A stretch of 64,000 nucleotides of DNA from Ochrobactrum quorumnocens. GTDB taxonomy: Bacteria > Pseudomonadota > Alphaproteobacteria > Rhizobiales > Rhizobiaceae. The stretch spans positions 558,001 to 622,000 of the forward strand of contig NZ_CP022603.1 of assembly GCF_002278035.1 (NCBI RefSeq), in the 5' to 3' direction. The notes below the pieces were generated by a model that saw only the letters and a program-made list of their open reading frames with translations, made no database searches and was not told the DNA's origin. This document shows positions 1,885 through 61,099 of the stretch, in pieces; within the stretch, counting starts at the first letter, position 1; each line of letters starts with the position of its first letter. The position numbers and the translations under genes were made by a program.

Positions 1885-1945
1885 CATTGGATTGAATTTG
1901 ACGTCTGTATCGAGGGTTGCAAATTTCGGAATCAGACCACTAGTA
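1885..1945. repeat. Partial copy of the TGGATTGAATTTGACG palindromic repeat
   Basis: The core TTGGATTGAATTTGACGT matches the left arm of the palindrome at 36400-36480, and the segment ends near ACCACTAG, resembling the CTAGTGG ends there. It lies in the gap after the outer-membrane protein gene. It is degenerate and has only one recognisable arm. Confidence 0.5.
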
Positions 1946-7687: not shown

Positions 7688-7726
7688 CTATAACGCCGAT
7701 CTGCTTCAATCAGATCGGCGTTATAG
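7688..7726. repeat. Palindromic repeat / hairpin
   Basis: Perfect 16-bp inverted repeat (CTATAACGCCGATCTG and its complement) with a 7-nt loop. It resembles the left palindrome of the element at 50427-50525 (TAGAGCGCCGATCTG). It could terminate transcription from the dehydratase operon, though no T-run follows directly. Confidence 0.7.
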
Positions 7727-35985: not shown

Positions 35986-36402
35986 ATGTCTATTCAATCA
36001 CTCATCGATACTGTCGCCAATAGGGTCAACATCGAACAACCATTGGCAGAAAAACTGACAGGATCGGTCTTTTCCGTATTGCAGCACAGCACACCTGAAA
36101 TCGGAGAAAAAGTGTTTGTGCTGTTGCCTGACGCAAAGCCACTGGCTGCAAACCATGATGTACTCGCAGCAGGGAGTGACGGTTTTATGGGAACATTCTC
36201 AGGATTGATGGATACATTTGCTGGAGAAAAAATGAGTGCCCTGCTGAAAGCCGCAGCCAGCTTACGTTCGAGCGGCCTCTCCAGCGAACAGATCACCGAT
36301 GCGGGAAATCAGGTGTTCTTATATATCCGCGAGCGCGATCCAGATCTGGTAGATCAACTGTTCATCGCAGCACCATCTATCAAAGAGCATTTTGGTCTCT
36401 AG
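35986..36402 (+). CDS. Conserved hypothetical protein
   Basis: 138 residues, CAGGAG ribosome site. It looks soluble and mainly helical: an N-terminal helix with IDTVANRVNIEQPLAEKL, a Gly-rich turn GSDGFMGTFSGLMDTFAGEKM shown by its ends, then ALLKAAASLRSSGLSSEQI. The pattern is reminiscent of DUF2267/DUF2780-like proteins but I cannot assign it. It stands alone. Its TAG stop is the first three bases of a palindromic repeat. Confidence 0.65.
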   Translation: MSIQSLIDTVANRVNIEQPLAEKLTGSVFSVLQHSTPEIGEKVFVLLPDAKPLAANHDVLAAGSDGFMGTFSGLMDTFAGEKMSALLKAAASLRSSGLSSEQITDAGNQVFLYIRERDPDLVDQLFIAAPSIKEHFGL

Positions 36403-36480
36403 TGGATTGAATTTGACGTTTGAATCCCGACTGACACACAAGCTGTTTCAAACGTCAAATTCGAAAAATCCAATAGATTC
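36400..36480. repeat. Palindromic repeat starting at a stop codon
   Basis: TAGTGGATTGAATTTGACG pairs with a right arm containing CGTCAAATTC and AATCCAATA. The left TAG is the stop codon of the upstream hypothetical gene. A CTAGTGG sequence recurs at 36490. A fragment of the GCGCATC-type repeat (36501-36520) follows before the beta-lactamase gene. One arm of the same repeat is at 1885. Confidence 0.75.
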
Positions 36481-39052: not shown

Positions 39053-40351
39053 ATGCTCAATCAACGGCCTTATCAAAGCCCCATCTCGCCCGGATTTTCA
39101 TGGTACGAGGCGAGTGTTTCTGAGCGTCCGCAATATGCCGAACTTGATGGTGCTCGGCAGGCCGATGTCGTCGTCATCGGCGGGGGCTATACTGGGCTGT
39201 CGGCAGCTCATCATCTGGCGAAACAAGGCGCTGACGTCGTCCTGATCGAGGCTGCTCGTTTCGGCGATGGAGCTTCCGGGCGCAATGGCGGACAGTTTGG
39301 CACAGGTCAACGCACATGGGCGGAAGATCTTGAAAAGCAGTATGGTTTGGAGCGTGCGAAAGCTCTCTTCAACATAGCGGAGGAGGCCAAGGCGCATCTC
39401 CTCGGTTTTGCGCGCGAGCACAATATCGACATGGAATATATGCCCGGCCAAATCTCTGCCGTGCATAAGCCGCGCTACCTCAAGAACTATCAGGAACATG
39501 CGGAATTGATGGCGACACGCTTCAGCTATCCGCATATTCGCTATGTCGAACGCGAGGAAATGGCAACGTTGCTCGGCTCTAACCGCTATCATGGCGGCGT
39601 TTATGATGCGGGCACAGGCCATATTCATCCGCTGAAACTGTTGATCGGCTTGGCCAAAGTTACCGAAGCAGCTGGTGCTCATCTTTACGAAAACACCAAA
39701 GCTACAAAGATCAGCACGGTAAGCGGTCGCATCGAAGTGGAAACACCGCGCGGCACGATTTCAGCGAAGAACGCCTTCATCGCGGTCAATGCTCATGGCG
39801 GCGATCTGGAACCGACAAGTGCCGCCCACGTCATGCCGATCCGGTCTTTCATTGGCGCAACAGCACCTTTGGGCGATGACAGTCCAGTCATCCCCGGCGG
39901 AGAGTCGGTCGATGACTCGCGCTTCGTTGTACGCTATTTCCGCAAATCCAAGGATGGTCGCCTGCTGTTTGGCGGTCGTGAGGCCTATACAGCCGACAAT
40001 CCCCGCGACATAAGCGAACATATCCGCCGACAGATCGCGGAGATTTACCCCGCCCTGGACAAGGTTGAAATCACGCAAGCCTGGGGCGGATCGGTAGGCA
40101 TAACCATGCCACGCCAGCCATTTGTGCGCGAAGTAATGCCCGGTGTCATTTCTGCAGGCGGCTATTCCGGCCATGGGGTGATGCTGGCCAATTATATGGG
40201 CAGGCTTTACGCAGAGGCAGTCAGCGGCAAGCGCGAGAATCTCAAACTCTTTGAAGAGTTACGTATTCCCGCTTTCCCCGGCGGCCGCACTTTCCGCGCA
40301 CCTCTGCTATTTGTGGCTCTGTCATGGTACGCGCTGATGGATCGGATTTAA
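39053..40351 (+). CDS. puuB: Gamma-glutamylputrescine oxidoreductase (DAO-family FAD enzyme)
   Basis: 432 residues from the ATG at 39053. N-terminal FAD motif DVVVIGGGYTGLSAAHHLAK (about 37-56), the second-strand acidic residue in VVLIEAARFGDGASGRNGGQ and the C-terminal SAGGYSGHGVMLANYMG are hallmarks of the DadA/PuuB family. The N-terminal SWYEASV motif is also typical of PuuB. It oxidises gamma-glutamylputrescine to the aminobutyraldehyde, with hydrogen peroxide. It forms an operon with puuA; puuC and puuD are not in the window. Confidence 0.88.
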   Translation: MLNQRPYQSPISPGFSWYEASVSERPQYAELDGARQADVVVIGGGYTGLSAAHHLAKQGADVVLIEAARFGDGASGRNGGQFGTGQRTWAEDLEKQYGLERAKALFNIAEEAKAHLLGFAREHNIDMEYMPGQISAVHKPRYLKNYQEHAELMATRFSYPHIRYVEREEMATLLGSNRYHGGVYDAGTGHIHPLKLLIGLAKVTEAAGAHLYENTKATKISTVSGRIEVETPRGTISAKNAFIAVNAHGGDLEPTSAAHVMPIRSFIGATAPLGDDSPVIPGGESVDDSRFVVRYFRKSKDGRLLFGGREAYTADNPRDISEHIRRQIAEIYPALDKVEITQAWGGSVGITMPRQPFVREVMPGVISAGGYSGHGVMLANYMGRLYAEAVSGKRENLKLFEELRIPAFPGGRTFRAPLLFVALSWYALMDRI

Positions 40352-49729: not shown

Positions 49730-49778
49730 TGCATGAGGGCGATAGTTACCCTCATTCCGCGATTCTTTGAGACAAGCC

Positions 49779-50429
49779 ATGACGACACATCTTTTTGCGC
49801 CCCATGATGTTCTTGCAGCCAAGCTTTTGCCACACGCACTCGACAGCCATGAGGATGGATCACATGATCTGTCTCACCTTACTCGCGTATGGAAAAATGC
49901 GGCCCTCATTCAGCAGACAGAGGGCGGAGACGCAGAAATATTATGCGCAGCCGCCCTTATGCATGATTGCGTGAGCGTAGAGAAAAATTCACCTGAGCGT
50001 CACCTTGCCTCGCGCTTAGCTGCCGAAAAAGCAACCAGCCTGCTGCGTGAACTTAGTTGGAGTGAAGAACGGATCGCAGCAACAGCGCATGCAATTGAGG
50101 CACATAGCTTCTCAGCCAATATCGAGCCACGCACTGTTGAGGCTAAGATCTTACAAGATGCGGACCGGCTCGATGCTATCGGTGTCATTGGAGCAGCACG
50201 CTGCTTTTACATCGCAGGCCGTATGGGCAGCGCGCTTTATGATTGGCAAGACCCGAAGGCGAAAAGCCGCCCACTTGATGACAAACGTTATGCGCTTGAT
50301 CACTTCCGAGCCAAATTGTTCAAGCTTGCTTCCGGATTCAAAACAGAAACGGCAAGCCGCATGGCTACGGAGCGCCATGAAAAGCTGGAGGCTATATTCA
50401 ACGATTTCCTGTGTGAAGCAGGCAGTTAG
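49779..50429 (+). CDS. HD-domain phosphohydrolase
   Basis: 216 residues from the ATG at 49779. HD motif residues are SHDLSHLTRVWKNA (first His), CAAALMHDCVSV (HD pair at about 70) and a late DADRLDAIGVIG. The HD order and size match the YedJ/YpgQ-type uncharacterised phosphohydrolases, which act on nucleotides. The stop codon TAG at 50427-50429 is the left end of a palindromic element. Confidence 0.85.
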   Translation: MTTHLFAPHDVLAAKLLPHALDSHEDGSHDLSHLTRVWKNAALIQQTEGGDAEILCAAALMHDCVSVEKNSPERHLASRLAAEKATSLLRELSWSEERIAATAHAIEAHSFSANIEPRTVEAKILQDADRLDAIGVIGAARCFYIAGRMGSALYDWQDPKAKSRPLDDKRYALDHFRAKLFKLASGFKTETASRMATERHEKLEAIFNDFLCEAGS

Positions 50430-50525
50430 AGCGCCGATCTGGTTGGATCAGATCGGCGCTCTAACAGTTTGTTTTAACACGCATATTTGTCCGAAAACCG
50501 TTTCACGCTTTAGCTATGCGCTCTA
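50427..50525. repeat. 99-bp palindromic element supplying two stop codons
   Basis: Ends TAGAGCGC and GCGCTCTA. Left part: hairpin GCGCCGATCTG/CAGATCGGCGC. Right part: GCATATTTGTCCGAAAACCG, as at 34402. The first TAG is the stop of the HD gene on the plus strand, and the last CTA is the stop (TAG) of the convergent SDR gene on the minus strand. Confidence 0.9.
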
Positions 50526-51272
50526 AATCGAATAACCGCCATCAACGCTGAGTGCTGTTCCCGTAATCATCGATGATGCATCCGACGCCAGGAAAAGCGC
50601 TGCTTCCGCAATGTCTCCAGGTTTGGAGAAACGGCCAAACGGGATCGTGCCTTTCAGGCTCTCGCGTGCCGCGGGGGTGTCTTCTGCGAGAAACATCCCT
50701 AAAGCTTCGCCGTCGCTTTCAGCGGGGCAAATACAGTTGACGCGAATATTTTTTTCGGCGAGTTCCAGCGCCATCGCCTTGGTCGCGCTTACAACCCAGC
50801 CTTTGGACGCCGCAAACCACGTAAGACCTTTGCGCGGACGATTGGCCATTGCAGATGCAGTGTTGATGATCACGCCGCTGCCCTGATGCTCCATGATTGG
50901 CACGACCAGCAGCGTCGAATGGTAGATCGCCTTCATGTTGACCGCATTGATGAGATCAAACGCGTGCTCATCCACTTCCGTCAAAGGCATATTGCGATGC
51001 GTGAAACCCGCATTGTTGACCATGATATCGATGCGACCGAACTTATCAAAAGCCGCACGTGCCAGCCGTTCCATATCATCCTTGCGTGACACATCAGCCT
51101 GCACGGACAACGCATCTTTGCCGATATCGGCAAGTTCGTCTTCCAGGCGTTTCACATTCACATCGGCCAGCACAACCTTGGCGCCCTCAGCTGCAAAGCG
51201 GCGCGCTATGGCAGAACCGAAACCAGATCCAGCACCTGTGATAATCGCAACCTTGTCCTGCAGCCTCTTCAT
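50523..51272 (-). CDS. SDR-family protein with catalytic Tyr replaced by Phe
   Basis: 249 residues, AAGGAG ribosome site. The SDR fold is complete: TGAGSGFGSAIA (12-23), NNAG (86-89), VIINTAS with S140, GGYSI at the end. But the Y-x3-K motif reads F153-A-A-S-K157, where F153 is encoded TTT (one base from TAT). The rest of the tetrad is present. The fold suggests a 3-oxoacyl or polyol dehydrogenase relative (GlcDH/FabG-like). It could be inactive or use another base, and the codon should be confirmed. It ends in the palindromic element above. Confidence 0.85.
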   Translation of the reverse strand: MKRLQDKVAIITGAGSGFGSAIARRFAAEGAKVVLADVNVKRLEDELADIGKDALSVQADVSRKDDMERLARAAFDKFGRIDIMVNNAGFTHRNMPLTEVDEHAFDLINAVNMKAIYHSTLLVVPIMEHQGSGVIINTASAMANRPRKGLTWFAASKGWVVSATKAMALELAEKNIRVNCICPAESDGEALGMFLAEDTPAARESLKGTIPFGRFSKPGDIAEAALFLASDASSMITGTALSVDGGYSI

Positions 51273-51516
51273 GTCATTCTCCTTTTGCGGATGTAGGATA
51301 TGATCCGCCCGTCAAATCAGTAAAAACTTTGTTCAGCACTGCTGTGTTCATGCCTGAATATGGCTCTATGTTGAACATGTCATCTATGCATATGCGGTTA
51401 ACCGAGATGCAAAGACAGCTGTAATTGGCAACATTCGCGAGAATGTTACATTGGATGGTTGAATTTAAATCGATTAGATTATAGACAGAGGCTGTACGAA
51501 AATCGCATTCTGCTAT

Positions 51517-51621
51517 TAGTGCGCCGTGCGCCCTCTTGGGCGCATAAAGGACGCTCTGAACTATTAAATCTACGCATCGTACTTTCCAAAAATCGATTCC
51601 GATTTTTGGGCCGATGCTGTA
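51517..51621. repeat. 105-bp palindromic repeat upstream of zwf (copy A)
   Basis: About 90% identical and co-linear with 60995-61099 (about 10 differences in 105 bases). It starts TAGTGCGCCGTGCGCCC, contains GACGCTCTGAACTATT and ends GGGCCGATGCTGTA. It lies 39 bp before the zwf start. The zwf reading frame is open through it but has no supported start there. Confidence 0.9.
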
Positions 51622-53342: not shown

Positions 53343-54041
53343 ATGAGCATCGAACGGCACGATTTCACCAGCGGAACGGAACTGGCACAGTCGCTTTCTG
53401 AAGCGATTGCGAACAAGCTGGCTGCCGCTATCGCTGAGCGGGGGCAAGCGACACTCGCTGTTTCCGGCGGCACGACGCCGCTCAAGCTGTTTGACATCCT
53501 ATCGCGCAAGATGATCGACTGGACGCTCGTCACAATCACGCTTGTCGATGAGCGTTTCGTACCCCCAACAAACGAACGTTCAAACGAAAAGCTGGTGCGC
53601 GATCATCTATTGCGCGATCATGCAGGTGTTGCGAAGTTCGTCGGTCTTTATAATCCGGCCGCAACAGCTGAAACTGCAGCTCTTGCTGCCGCCAATCGTA
53701 TCGATGCACTGCGCCGTCCTTTTGACGTCGTTGTGCTCGGCATGGGCAATGATGGCCACACGGCATCGTTCTTCCCTAATGCCGACAGGCTCGATCAGGC
53801 GATTGATCCGACAACAAAGGCCGTTGTTCTGCCAATCCATGCCGAAGGTGCTGGCGAGAAGCGCCTGACCCTTACGCTGCCATTGCTCGCTGAAGCTGAT
53901 ATGCTGGTTCTGCACATCGAAGGTGCGGCCAAGCAGGCGACACTTGAGCAAGCATTGGCTGGCGATGACGAGACTGAAATGCCAGTGCGTGCGGTCTTCC
54001 GCCATGCCCGCAAACCGATCCAGCTTTACTGGACCAGTTAG
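53343..54041 (+). CDS. pgl: 6-phosphogluconolactonase
   Basis: 232 residues from the ATG at 53343 (AAAGG upstream). The glucosamine-6-phosphate isomerase-like fold is recognised by ATLAVSGGTTPLKLFDIL, TLVDERFVPPTNERSNE (given by TLVDERFVP...ERSNE), and the substrate-binding LGMGNDGHTASFFP (His catalytic). It hydrolyses 6-phosphogluconolactone. Its TAG stop starts the following repeat. It lies between zwf and edd on the same strand. Confidence 0.95.
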   Translation: MSIERHDFTSGTELAQSLSEAIANKLAAAIAERGQATLAVSGGTTPLKLFDILSRKMIDWTLVTITLVDERFVPPTNERSNEKLVRDHLLRDHAGVAKFVGLYNPAATAETAALAAANRIDALRRPFDVVVLGMGNDGHTASFFPNADRLDQAIDPTTKAVVLPIHAEGAGEKRLTLTLPLLAEADMLVLHIEGAAKQATLEQALAGDDETEMPVRAVFRHARKPIQLYWTS

Positions 54042-54185
54042 AGCAGTTCCAATTAAGAACGCAGCAGTTTGCGTTCGGGCTACAGCATAATTCCTTAAAC
54101 CTGAATCAGTTTAAGGTAAAATTATGCTGTAAATATAGAGTGTTAGAGTGACCTTTGTGCGCCCAAGAAGGCGCACAGCGCTCTA
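54039..54185. repeat. Composite palindromic element between pgl and edd
   Basis: Begins TAGAGCAGTTCC, with TAG being the pgl stop, and ends AGCGCTCTA. It contains ACAGCATAATTCCTTAAAC paired with GTTTAAGG...ATTATGCTGT (also at 40435-40539, inverted). Its right part 54145-54184 is an inverted degenerate copy of the start of the 60995 unit (GTGCGCCC/GGCGCAC). Confidence 0.85.
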
Positions 54186-58662: not shown

Positions 58663-59478
58663 ATGCAAGATACAGTTATTCTCGTTGGTTGCGGCAATAT
58701 GGGTTTCGCCATGCTGAAAGGCTGGCTCGACAGCGGCATTTTGCAATCCGAGAATGTGCATGTCGTCGAACCATCAGAGGCACTTCAGAGCCGCGCGGCT
58801 GGCGCTGGAGTTAATGCCTGCTCGAGTGCGGACTCCCTGTCCGATGATCTCAACCCGCGCATGATCCTCATCGCGGTCAAACCACAGGTCATGGGCGACG
58901 TTTTGCCTGCTTATAAGCGTTTTGCACCGAACGCGACCTTTGTCAGCGTGGCAGCAGGTATTCCTGTTTCATTTTTTGAACAGCATCTTGGCAGTGACGC
59001 CCGGATCATGCGCTGCATGCCCAATACACCGGCTGCAATCGGCAAGGGCATGCTTGTGACCTACAAGAACGCCAATGTGAGTGAGGATGATGCGGCTTTT
59101 GTAAAAAGCCTTCTCAAGACATCCGGCAAGGTGACAAGCATCGATGATGAAGCGCAGATGGATGCGGTGACCGCTGTTTCCGGCTCCGGCCCTGCTTATG
59201 TGTTCCATTTCATCGAAGCATTGACCGATGCCGGCGTCACCGCTGGTCTTCCGCGTGAAACCGCGGCACTTCTTGCCATGCAAACTGTTATGGGCGCCGG
59301 TGCACTTGCAGCAGCAAGCAACGACAGCCCGACAAAACTGCGCGAACAGGTGACAAGCCCCAAGGGTACCACTGCAGCTGCACTGGACATTTTGATGGGA
59401 GAAGATCGCCTCAAGAATCTGGTTGCCGAGGCCGTTGACGCCGCGCGCAAGCGTTCGATCGAGCTTGGGAAGGTCTAA
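58663..59478 (+). CDS. proC: Pyrroline-5-carboxylate reductase
   Basis: 271 residues. N-terminal cofactor motif LVGCGNMGFAMLKGWL (about 7-22), IAVKPQVM, RCMPNTPAAIGKGM, the substrate-binding signature DAVTAVSGSGPAYVFHF, and SPKGTTAAALDIL. It reduces pyrroline-5-carboxylate to proline with NADPH, the last step of proline synthesis. It has a GGCGGAAC ribosome site and is convergent with the ABC operon, overlapping its last gene by 4 bp. Confidence 0.96.
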   Translation: MQDTVILVGCGNMGFAMLKGWLDSGILQSENVHVVEPSEALQSRAAGAGVNACSSADSLSDDLNPRMILIAVKPQVMGDVLPAYKRFAPNATFVSVAAGIPVSFFEQHLGSDARIMRCMPNTPAAIGKGMLVTYKNANVSEDDAAFVKSLLKTSGKVTSIDDEAQMDAVTAVSGSGPAYVFHFIEALTDAGVTAGLPRETAALLAMQTVMGAGALAAASNDSPTKLREQVTSPKGTTAAALDILMGEDRLKNLVAEAVDAARKRSIELGKV

Positions 59479-60966: not shown

Positions 60967-60994
60967 GATTGCACCACTCGTCGTGCAGCCGTAC

Positions 60995-61099
60995 TAGAGC
61001 GCCGTGCGCCCTCTTCGGCGCACAAAGGACGCTCTGAACTATTGAACCTATGCATCGTGCTTTCCAATAATCGATTGCGATTTTTGGGCCGATGCTGTG
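60995..61099. repeat. 105-bp palindromic repeat overlapping the permease 3' end (copy B)
   Basis: About 90% identical to 51517-51621. Bases 61048-61099 are coding on the minus strand and encode the last 16 residues of the permease (TASAQKSQSIIGKHDA) and its stop. The rest is intergenic. Confidence 0.9.

What the first reader, a model, noticed from the sequence alone, without database searches (positions are those of the whole stretch)
50427..50525. A palindromic element whose two ends are the stop codons of both convergent neighbours
The 99-bp element starts with TAGAGCGC and ends with GCGCTCTA. Its first TAG ends the HD-domain gene on the plus strand and its last CTA ends the SDR gene on the minus strand, so there is no intergenic sequence other than the element. 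Related elements start exactly at the pgl stop (54039) and, for a second repeat family, at the stop of the hypothetical gene at 36400. This suggests insertion or retention at TA-containing stop codons. Short palindromic repeats are known in Brucella (Bru-RS1/Bru-RS2), some as insertion targets for an IS element; the stop-codon coupling is my observation.
Basis: partly seen in the sequence, partly recalled or inferred. Interest (0 to 1): 0.7.

Follow-up and report, generated by a model that had tools for sequence, protein, structure and literature searches.

The report
Mobile repeat that rebuilds stop codons
A 99-base mobile DNA repeat landed exactly on the two letters shared by the stop codons of two facing genes and, by copying those letters, gave each gene back its own stop codon; similar landings are seen at other genes of this group of bacteria.

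Summary
Window 50427-50525 is a two-hairpin mosaic repeat whose outer TAG and CTA are the stop codons of the HD gene (+) and the SDR gene (-). Its right module matches 141 places in the window's genome. It resembles the Bru-RS/CIR repeats of alphaproteobacteria. In 13 of 21 same-genus relatives the gap does not exist: the two convergent stops overlap on one TA (YTAR). The window copy sits at that TA with the TA doubled; three relatives carry different TAGAGC-type elements at the same TA. 23 of 23 copies with both ends intact rebuild to YTAR when removed. At four further stops the protein end is the same, with or without an element, in 111 of 114 loci. Stop coupling is strong against random position (19 of 41, 3.3 expected) but not against YTAR sites of the same gap (17 of 35, 18.6 expected), though stop YTARs are used about three times more than YTARs of element-free gaps. 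So this is a TA-duplicating MITE whose target overlaps stop codons and whose TA-G ends rebuild TAG. An IS630-type transposase as mover is inferred.

The parts
50427..50525 (.). 99-bp TA-flanked repeat element (mosaic of two hairpin modules; consensus of ten copies 104 bp)
50427..50463 (.). first hairpin module, near-perfect stem
50464..50479 (.). linker between the modules, T-rich on the + strand
50480..50525 (.). second hairpin module (CGCATA...TATGCG) and right end GCGCTCTA; the module whose core was used as pattern to count copies
50427..50429 (+). TAG: left element end, stop codon of the HD gene; its TA is one copy of the target duplication
50523..50525 (-). CTA (TAG on -): right element end, stop codon of the SDR gene; its TA is the other copy
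49767..50429 (+). HD-domain gene (PF01966)
50523..51272 (-). short-chain dehydrogenase gene (PF13561/PF00106)
36400..36477 (.). element of a second family (TAGTGGATTGAATTTGACG...) at the stop of the hypothetical gene 35986-36402; right end decayed, so its limit is approximate
54039..54058 (.). 20-base remnant of another element end at the pgl stop

Best explanation
The element is a non-autonomous, TA-duplicating mobile repeat (MITE-like) of the Bru-RS/CIR kind. It inserted at the TA shared by the overlapping stop codons of two convergent genes. The target is YTAR; every TAA/TAG stop is TAR, and two convergent stops overlapping by two bases are exactly YTAR. The TA is doubled, and the element begins TA-G and ends C-TA. 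A hit stop, TAA or TAG, is therefore rebuilt as TAG on each side, and both proteins keep their ends. Such insertions are nearly harmless and persist; insertions in coding or promoter YTARs are lost. Shown: the empty sites, YTAR, the doubled TA, the unchanged protein ends, repeated hits at the same stops. Inferred: movement by an IS630/Tc1-mariner-type transposase in trans, and purifying selection as the reason for the pattern.
For: Empty site: 13 of 21 same-genus relatives have HD and SDR stops overlapping on one TA (CTAA, TTAA, CTAG or TTAG). Of the other 8, two keep the YTAR with a changed HD frame, three carry other TAGAGC-type elements at the same TA (L033, L035, L041), and three carry an unrelated repeat. 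Target: 23 of 23 copies with both ends intact rebuild to YTAR (TTAA 15, TTAG 4, CTAA 3, CTAG 1); judged by one end alone, 34 of 36 left ends follow Y and 40 of 46 right ends precede R. L097: the two nearest relatives read TTC-TAA-GTGC and TTC-TAA-CTGC, own TTT-TA[GAGC..]TAA-CTGC. Protein ends: at four further stops the stop lies at the same residue in 111 of 114 loci, 4 of them own, with or without an element. Another order: in Asticcacaulis excentricus pASEM-1 the annotated TonB gene ends on the element's own TAG; this is 1 of 6 annotated foreign loci read. Mover: in 14 of 14 IS630-family (DDE_3) copies whose ends I accepted, the ends are TA-GAGC, TA-GAAC or TA-AAGC and the site is YTAR.
Against: No transposition was observed. 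The match of IS630 ends to element ends beyond the first five bases is good for few: 4 of 18 ends have p below 0.04 (best 0.002), all on one module, uncorrected. Six of 46 right ends are not followed by R and two of 36 left ends not preceded by Y. Stop YTARs are used about three times more than YTARs of element-free gaps (19 of 41 against 25 of 172, Fisher p 2.7e-5), so YTAR alone does not say which gaps are hit. Gene calls came from a home-made gene finder. 57 of 98 copies were dropped from the count. In five of six foreign loci the element's TAG is not the annotated stop.
Confidence: 0.86

Rival explanations
1. The elements are kept at gene ends because they work there, as bidirectional terminators or RNA stabilisers, and selection places them next to stops.
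For: Strong hairpins on both strands (z -4.5 and -5.1); one terminator-like match at 50425-50465 +; elements are rare in divergent gaps (2 of 41 against 44 of 172 control YTARs) and about three times enriched at stops over control YTARs.
Against: The terminator match is no more than shuffles give (1 found, mean 0.7). 13 of 21 relatives have no gap at all. Two of the four filled HD/SDR sites, own included, have lost the HD-side TAG by point mutation (L033, L041). Within a gap stops are not preferred over other YTARs.
Confidence: 0.15
2. The element landed inside a gene and its TAG cut the protein short, so the stop coincidence is a by-product of truncation.
For: An intragenic insertion would put TAG in frame in one of three cases (reasoning).
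Against: The stop lies at the same residue in 111 of 114 loci at four sites, most of them without an element, and HD and SDR end at the shared TA in the 13 empty relatives.
Confidence: 0.03
3. REP-type palindromes moved by a RAYT (TnpA-REP) single-strand mechanism.
For: GTAG REPs also often provide TAG stops to flanking ORFs (PMC3733652, passages).
Against: Here TA is doubled at a TA target and both ends are inverted repeats of each other, as in double-strand DDE transposition. No RAYT search was run.
Confidence: 0.05
4. The mover is not IS630-like but the IS5-family element (IS711-like, 15 copies in this genome), which also uses YTAR.
For: 15 copies with the same 845-bp length, TA-flanked, 14 of 15 beside a recognisable element end, judged by eye; IS711 doubles TA at YTAR and goes into Bru-RS1 (PMC3163539, PMC2266754, passages).
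Against: Its ends (TA-GGCTCC.., TA-GGGTCC..) do not resemble TA-GAGC (scores 3 and 5 against 7-12 for the IS630 ends). It uses element ends as target rather than sharing them.
Confidence: 0.12

Closest known systems
Bru-RS1 / Bru-RS2 of Brucella
   Same: 103-106 bp, palindromic, repeated (PMC10800456 and PMC3163539 passages; a table row in PMC2267715 read without its heading); target of IS711 with TA doubled at YTAR (PMC3163539, PMC2266754, passages); same genus in the wide sense
   Different: Published Bru-RS letters were not at hand, so identity was not tested; stop-codon coupling and empty sites are not in the passages seen
CIR (CcrM-associated intergenic repeats) of Caulobacter, Brucella and others
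   Same: About 110 bp, two arms joined by a linker, TA at the ends, intergenic (PMC2229807 section 7 and a table passage)
   Different: GANTC is absent from the window copy and present in 16 of 98 copies
RUP of Streptococcus pneumoniae / IS630-Spn1
   Same: 107 bp, TA target, ends like those of an IS630, proposed to be moved in trans; enriched between convergent genes (PMC2229807, PMC3049150, passages)
   Different: Other phylum, other sequence; the end match is described as high there and is weak for most ends here
BOX of S. pneumoniae
   Same: The repeat encodes the stop codon of 36 genes without strong evidence of truncation (PMC3049150 passage)
   Different: No relation in sequence known to me (not tested); the passage gives no target-site reason
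GTAG REPs
   Same: Ends often give TAG stops to flanking ORFs; close to 3' ends, mostly tandem and convergent gaps (PMC3733652 passages)
   Different: REPs are 20-40 bp (abstract, listing); no TA duplication (recalled)

Membership tests
TA-duplicating MITE | short, terminal inverted repeats | tested here: met
   99-104 bp, ends TAGAGCGC/GCGCTCTA
TA-duplicating MITE | target duplication shown by empty sites | tested here: met
   HD/SDR site, L097; 23 of 23 two-ended copies rebuild to YTAR
TA-duplicating MITE | ends shared with an autonomous element in the same genome | tested here: inconclusive
   IS630-type copies L157-L159 have ends TA-GAGC or TA-GAAC; wider match weak (p 0.09-0.14)
Bru-RS1/Bru-RS2 | 103-106 bp palindromic repeat in Brucella | tested here: met
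   genus: contig lengths of G012 C2 and G016 C8 equal records of B. pituitosa and B. rhizosphaerae; size 99 bp, consensus 104 bp
Bru-RS1/Bru-RS2 | sequence identity with the published elements | not testable with these tools
   Halling and Bricker 1994 was seen only in reference lists
Bru-RS1/Bru-RS2 | target of an IS711-like IS at TA | tested here: met
   14 of 15 IS5-family copies abut an element end at TA, by eye
CIR | two stem-loop arms joined by a linker, about 110 bp | tested here: met
CIR | GANTC at the loop | tested here: not met
   none in the window copy; anywhere in the element in 16 of 98 copies
RIME (rhizobia) | sequence of RIME1/RIME2 | not tested
   no RIME sequence at hand; the first 39-42 bases of the query match Sinorhizobium, Rhizobium and Agrobacterium plasmids at 90-95%

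The most novel reading that the evidence does not exclude
The pair of target YTAR and ends TA-G is a stop-codon-repairing design: it lets a mobile repeat live at gene ends at almost no cost, pulls apart convergent genes that share a stop, and plants a hairpin between them. Over time this may set the spacing and stop-codon use (TAA to TAG) of convergent genes across alphaproteobacteria.
Probability: 0.3. Interest if true: 0.65.

Novelty: new member of a known kind. Interest (0 to 1): 0.45.

Why it matters
It offers one simple reason why small repeats supply stop codons: a TA-duplicating element whose ends restore TAR does not damage a stop that it hits. It gives a clean test, empty against filled sites, for whether repeats at gene ends are parasites in a safe place or useful terminators. 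It also warns gene annotators that the TAG of some genes here belongs to a mobile element.

Tried and rejected
Rejected: truncation by intragenic insertion, at the sites examined: protein ends unchanged. Stop-specific targeting within a gap: 17 of 35 observed, 18.6 expected; in the 13 informative gaps 4 observed, 4.6 expected. The earlier run, with the doubtful row L005 kept, gave 20 of 36 against 18.8, and the test on the 23 two-ended copies gave 10 against 9.25 for YTAR and 7.2 (P 0.08) for any TA, L005 counted as a hit. This within-gap test is weak: in 22 of 35 gaps it cannot discriminate.

Changed on checking: I first took the TAGAGC at the pgl stop (54039) for diverged native sequence; one search shows an 18-of-20 match with another element end, so it is now called a remnant.

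Led nowhere: Rfam at gathering scores found only a tRNA in the window; no match in E. coli genomes; of the IS5-type loci L084-L088, L085 gave ends unlike the element's and the other four gave none; no promoter-like match in 50300-50700. Searches for a published link between Bru-RS, YTAR or MITEs and stop codons (listings capped at 10-20 papers) led to the BOX and GTAG-REP precedents and to none for this family. Halling and Bricker 1994 and Chen and Shapiro 2003 were not read.

Rows dropped: of 98 copies, 52 lacked a clean right end, 4 lacked a gene on one side, 1 (L005) had an overlapping gene call; 41 remained. Some dropped copies (L111, L143, L153) also have their left end on a stop. The window's own copy is not among the 98, as it does not fit the pattern. 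One search listed 100 of 141 places. Loci L217 and L218 (short matches) were left out; searches were given loci for their 30 best places only. In one search, 36 IS630-type loci were examined; 14 pairs of ends went; L161 and L299 gave inverted repeats of other kinds and were left out, and the rest gave none.

Full report
What is there. Window 50427-50525 lies between an HD-domain gene on + (49767-50429) and a short-chain dehydrogenase gene on - (50523-51272); Pfam supports both. The first three bases of the element, TAG, end the HD gene; its last three, CTA, end the dehydrogenase gene. The element is a mosaic of two stem-loops with a linker: hairpin 50427-50463, linker, second module 50480-50525. 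It is one of many: a DNA search of the window's genome (G000, 5.65 Mb, 4 contigs) gave 51 matches, with 40 of 158 candidates scored, and a pattern for the core of the right module with up to 3 mismatches gave 141 places against 0 for the reversed control. Ten aligned copies give a 104-bp consensus. The same pattern is found in 35 of 35 genomes of the genus searched, at 2 to 171 places; the reversed control was found once in all 35.

Where it comes from. G000 has no name. The genus is therefore Brucella in the wide sense that takes in former Ochrobactrum (the last point recalled). Outside the genus, the full 104 bp is found at 80-86% in plasmids of Bartonella sp. HY strains and Asticcacaulis excentricus, and the left hairpin alone at 90-95% in Agrobacterium, Sinorhizobium and Rhizobium plasmids.

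The empty site. The HD gene was found in 21 of 34 relatives, and I read the junction in all 21. In 13 the two stop codons overlap on one TA: the site reads CTAA, TTAA, CTAG or TTAG and is at once the stop of both genes. In one (L037) the HD frame differs but CTAA is there; in one (L052) the HD frame is broken upstream but CTAG is there. Three carry TAGAGC-type elements at this TA, each different: G006 the same kinds of module in the opposite orientation (L041), G014 the opposite orientation with another hairpin (L035), G016 the same orientation with another first hairpin (L033). Three (L043, L045, L048) carry an unrelated repeat. In L033 and L041 the left TAG has since mutated and the HD frame runs on to a TGA inside the element. 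The window copy is thus an insertion at a shared TA, with TA doubled.

More sites. At the hypothetical gene ending at 36402, G014 has TAA at the same codon without the element, G024 has TGA, and G016 has a TAG-starting element of another kind. The gene ending at 40351 has TAA in the window, while G012 and G006 have a TA-GAGC.. element there. At the pgl stop the six relatives have TAA, and the window has a 20-base remnant of an element end. Four own-genome copies at gene stops were then compared with relatives. In 111 of 114 loci, 4 of them own, the stop lies at the same residue (exceptions L231, L235, L276 by 1-2 residues). At L097 the nearest relatives give a clean empty site, and only the own locus of 30 has an element at the stop. 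Judged by eye, at the L012 stop 8 of 30 loci have an element starting on the stop itself, of several kinds, and 5 have one just after a TGA stop; at the L004 stop 6 of 30 have an element of one or another family. Different elements at one stop in different species are therefore not rare.

Target and statistics. In the 23 copies with both ends intact and a gene on each side, removing the element and one TA leaves Y-TA-R in 23 of 23; by one end alone, 34 of 36 left ends follow Y and 40 of 46 right ends precede R. Of 98 distinct copies, 41 had a clean right end and usable gene calls; in 19 an end is a gene's stop. Placing each element at random in its own gap gives 3.3 (0 of 200,000 runs reached 19). 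Allowing only YTAR sites of the same gap gives 18.6 expected against 17 observed of 35, and 4.6 against 4 in the 13 informative gaps: no preference for stops as such, though the test is weak. Against YTAR sites in element-free gaps of up to 600 bp in the same loci and the window, the elements are more often at stops: 19 of 41 against 25 of 172 (Fisher p 2.7e-5); convergent 10 of 16 against 9 of 29 (p 0.06); tandem 9 of 23 against 16 of 99 (p 0.02); divergent gaps hold 2 of 41 elements but 44 of 172 control sites. In the window, coding DNA holds 126 YTARs, non-coding 121, stops 19. The simplest reading is insertion at YTAR anywhere, then loss of insertions in genes and promoters; insertions on stops or behind them survive. 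A benefit at stops is not excluded.

How it works. A stop TAA or TAG is TAR. Two convergent stops sharing TA are YTAR. The element starts TA-G and ends C-TA. Insertion with TA doubling turns the shared stop into two TAG stops, one for each gene. TA doubling and unchanged protein ends are shown; the enzyme is inferred. IS630-family (PF13358) elements occur in 29 of 35 genomes of the genus. In 36 loci examined, 14 gave acceptable TA-flanked end pairs; these begin GAGC, GAAC or AAGC and 14 of 14 sit at YTAR (TA was part of the search, Y and R were not). The first bases agree with the elements; agreement beyond five bases has p below 0.04 for 4 of 18 ends, all on one module, and is weak for the rest, the own-genome copies L157-L159 among them. 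Separately, an IS5-family element with 15 copies uses the TA of element ends as its own target in 14 of 15 cases by eye, as reported for IS711 and Bru-RS1 (PMC3163539 and PMC2266754, passages).

What is known. Bru-RS (PMC2267715, PMC10800456, passages), CIR (PMC2229807, passages and section 7) and RUP (PMC2229807, PMC3049150, passages) are the nearest kinds. Repeats supplying stop codons are in print for BOX (36 genes; PMC3049150) and GTAG REPs (PMC3733652). I found no statement that YTAR equals a shared convergent stop in the searches named in Tried and rejected. The window copy lacks the GANTC that is described for CIR, so I file it as a Bru-RS/CIR-like TA-duplicating MITE, not as a CIR. In foreign annotated records, 1 of 6 loci read (A. 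excentricus, L312) has the element's TAG as annotated stop; in two Bartonella loci (L310, L311) the stop ends one base before the element, and in three (L309, L313, L314) it is further away or the neighbouring gene faces otherwise.

Noticed in passing
L069-L083: An 845-bp IS5-family element in 15 near-identical copies; 14 of 15 sit at the TA of a TAGAGC-type element end, some between two elements that share one TA.
   Followed up: partly
L043, L045, L048 (HD/SDR gap): An unrelated 80-130 bp repeat sits at the same HD/SDR junction in three relatives; the dehydrogenase stop is then TGA.
   Followed up: no
window 59475-59478: Another convergent pair sharing one TA in its stops, with no element: an unoccupied site of the same kind.
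   Followed up: no
window 1888-1911 and 36403-36426; L166: Second TA-started repeat family (TAGTGGATT..ATTTGACG), also found on a stop codon in G016.
   Followed up: partly
window 7688-7726: A solo hairpin of about 39 nt like the first module, seen as a repeat pair with it.
   Followed up: no
window 54039-54185: Behind pgl: a 20-base remnant of an element end at the stop, the native hairpin, then two further hairpin elements from about 54078 and 54143.
   Followed up: partly
L312:1501-1503: In Asticcacaulis excentricus plasmid pASEM-1 the annotated TonB gene ends on the TAG of a full-length relative of the element.
   Followed up: yes
window 51514-51620 and 60992-61098: A 107-nt direct repeat, 91% identical, of another kind.
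   Followed up: no
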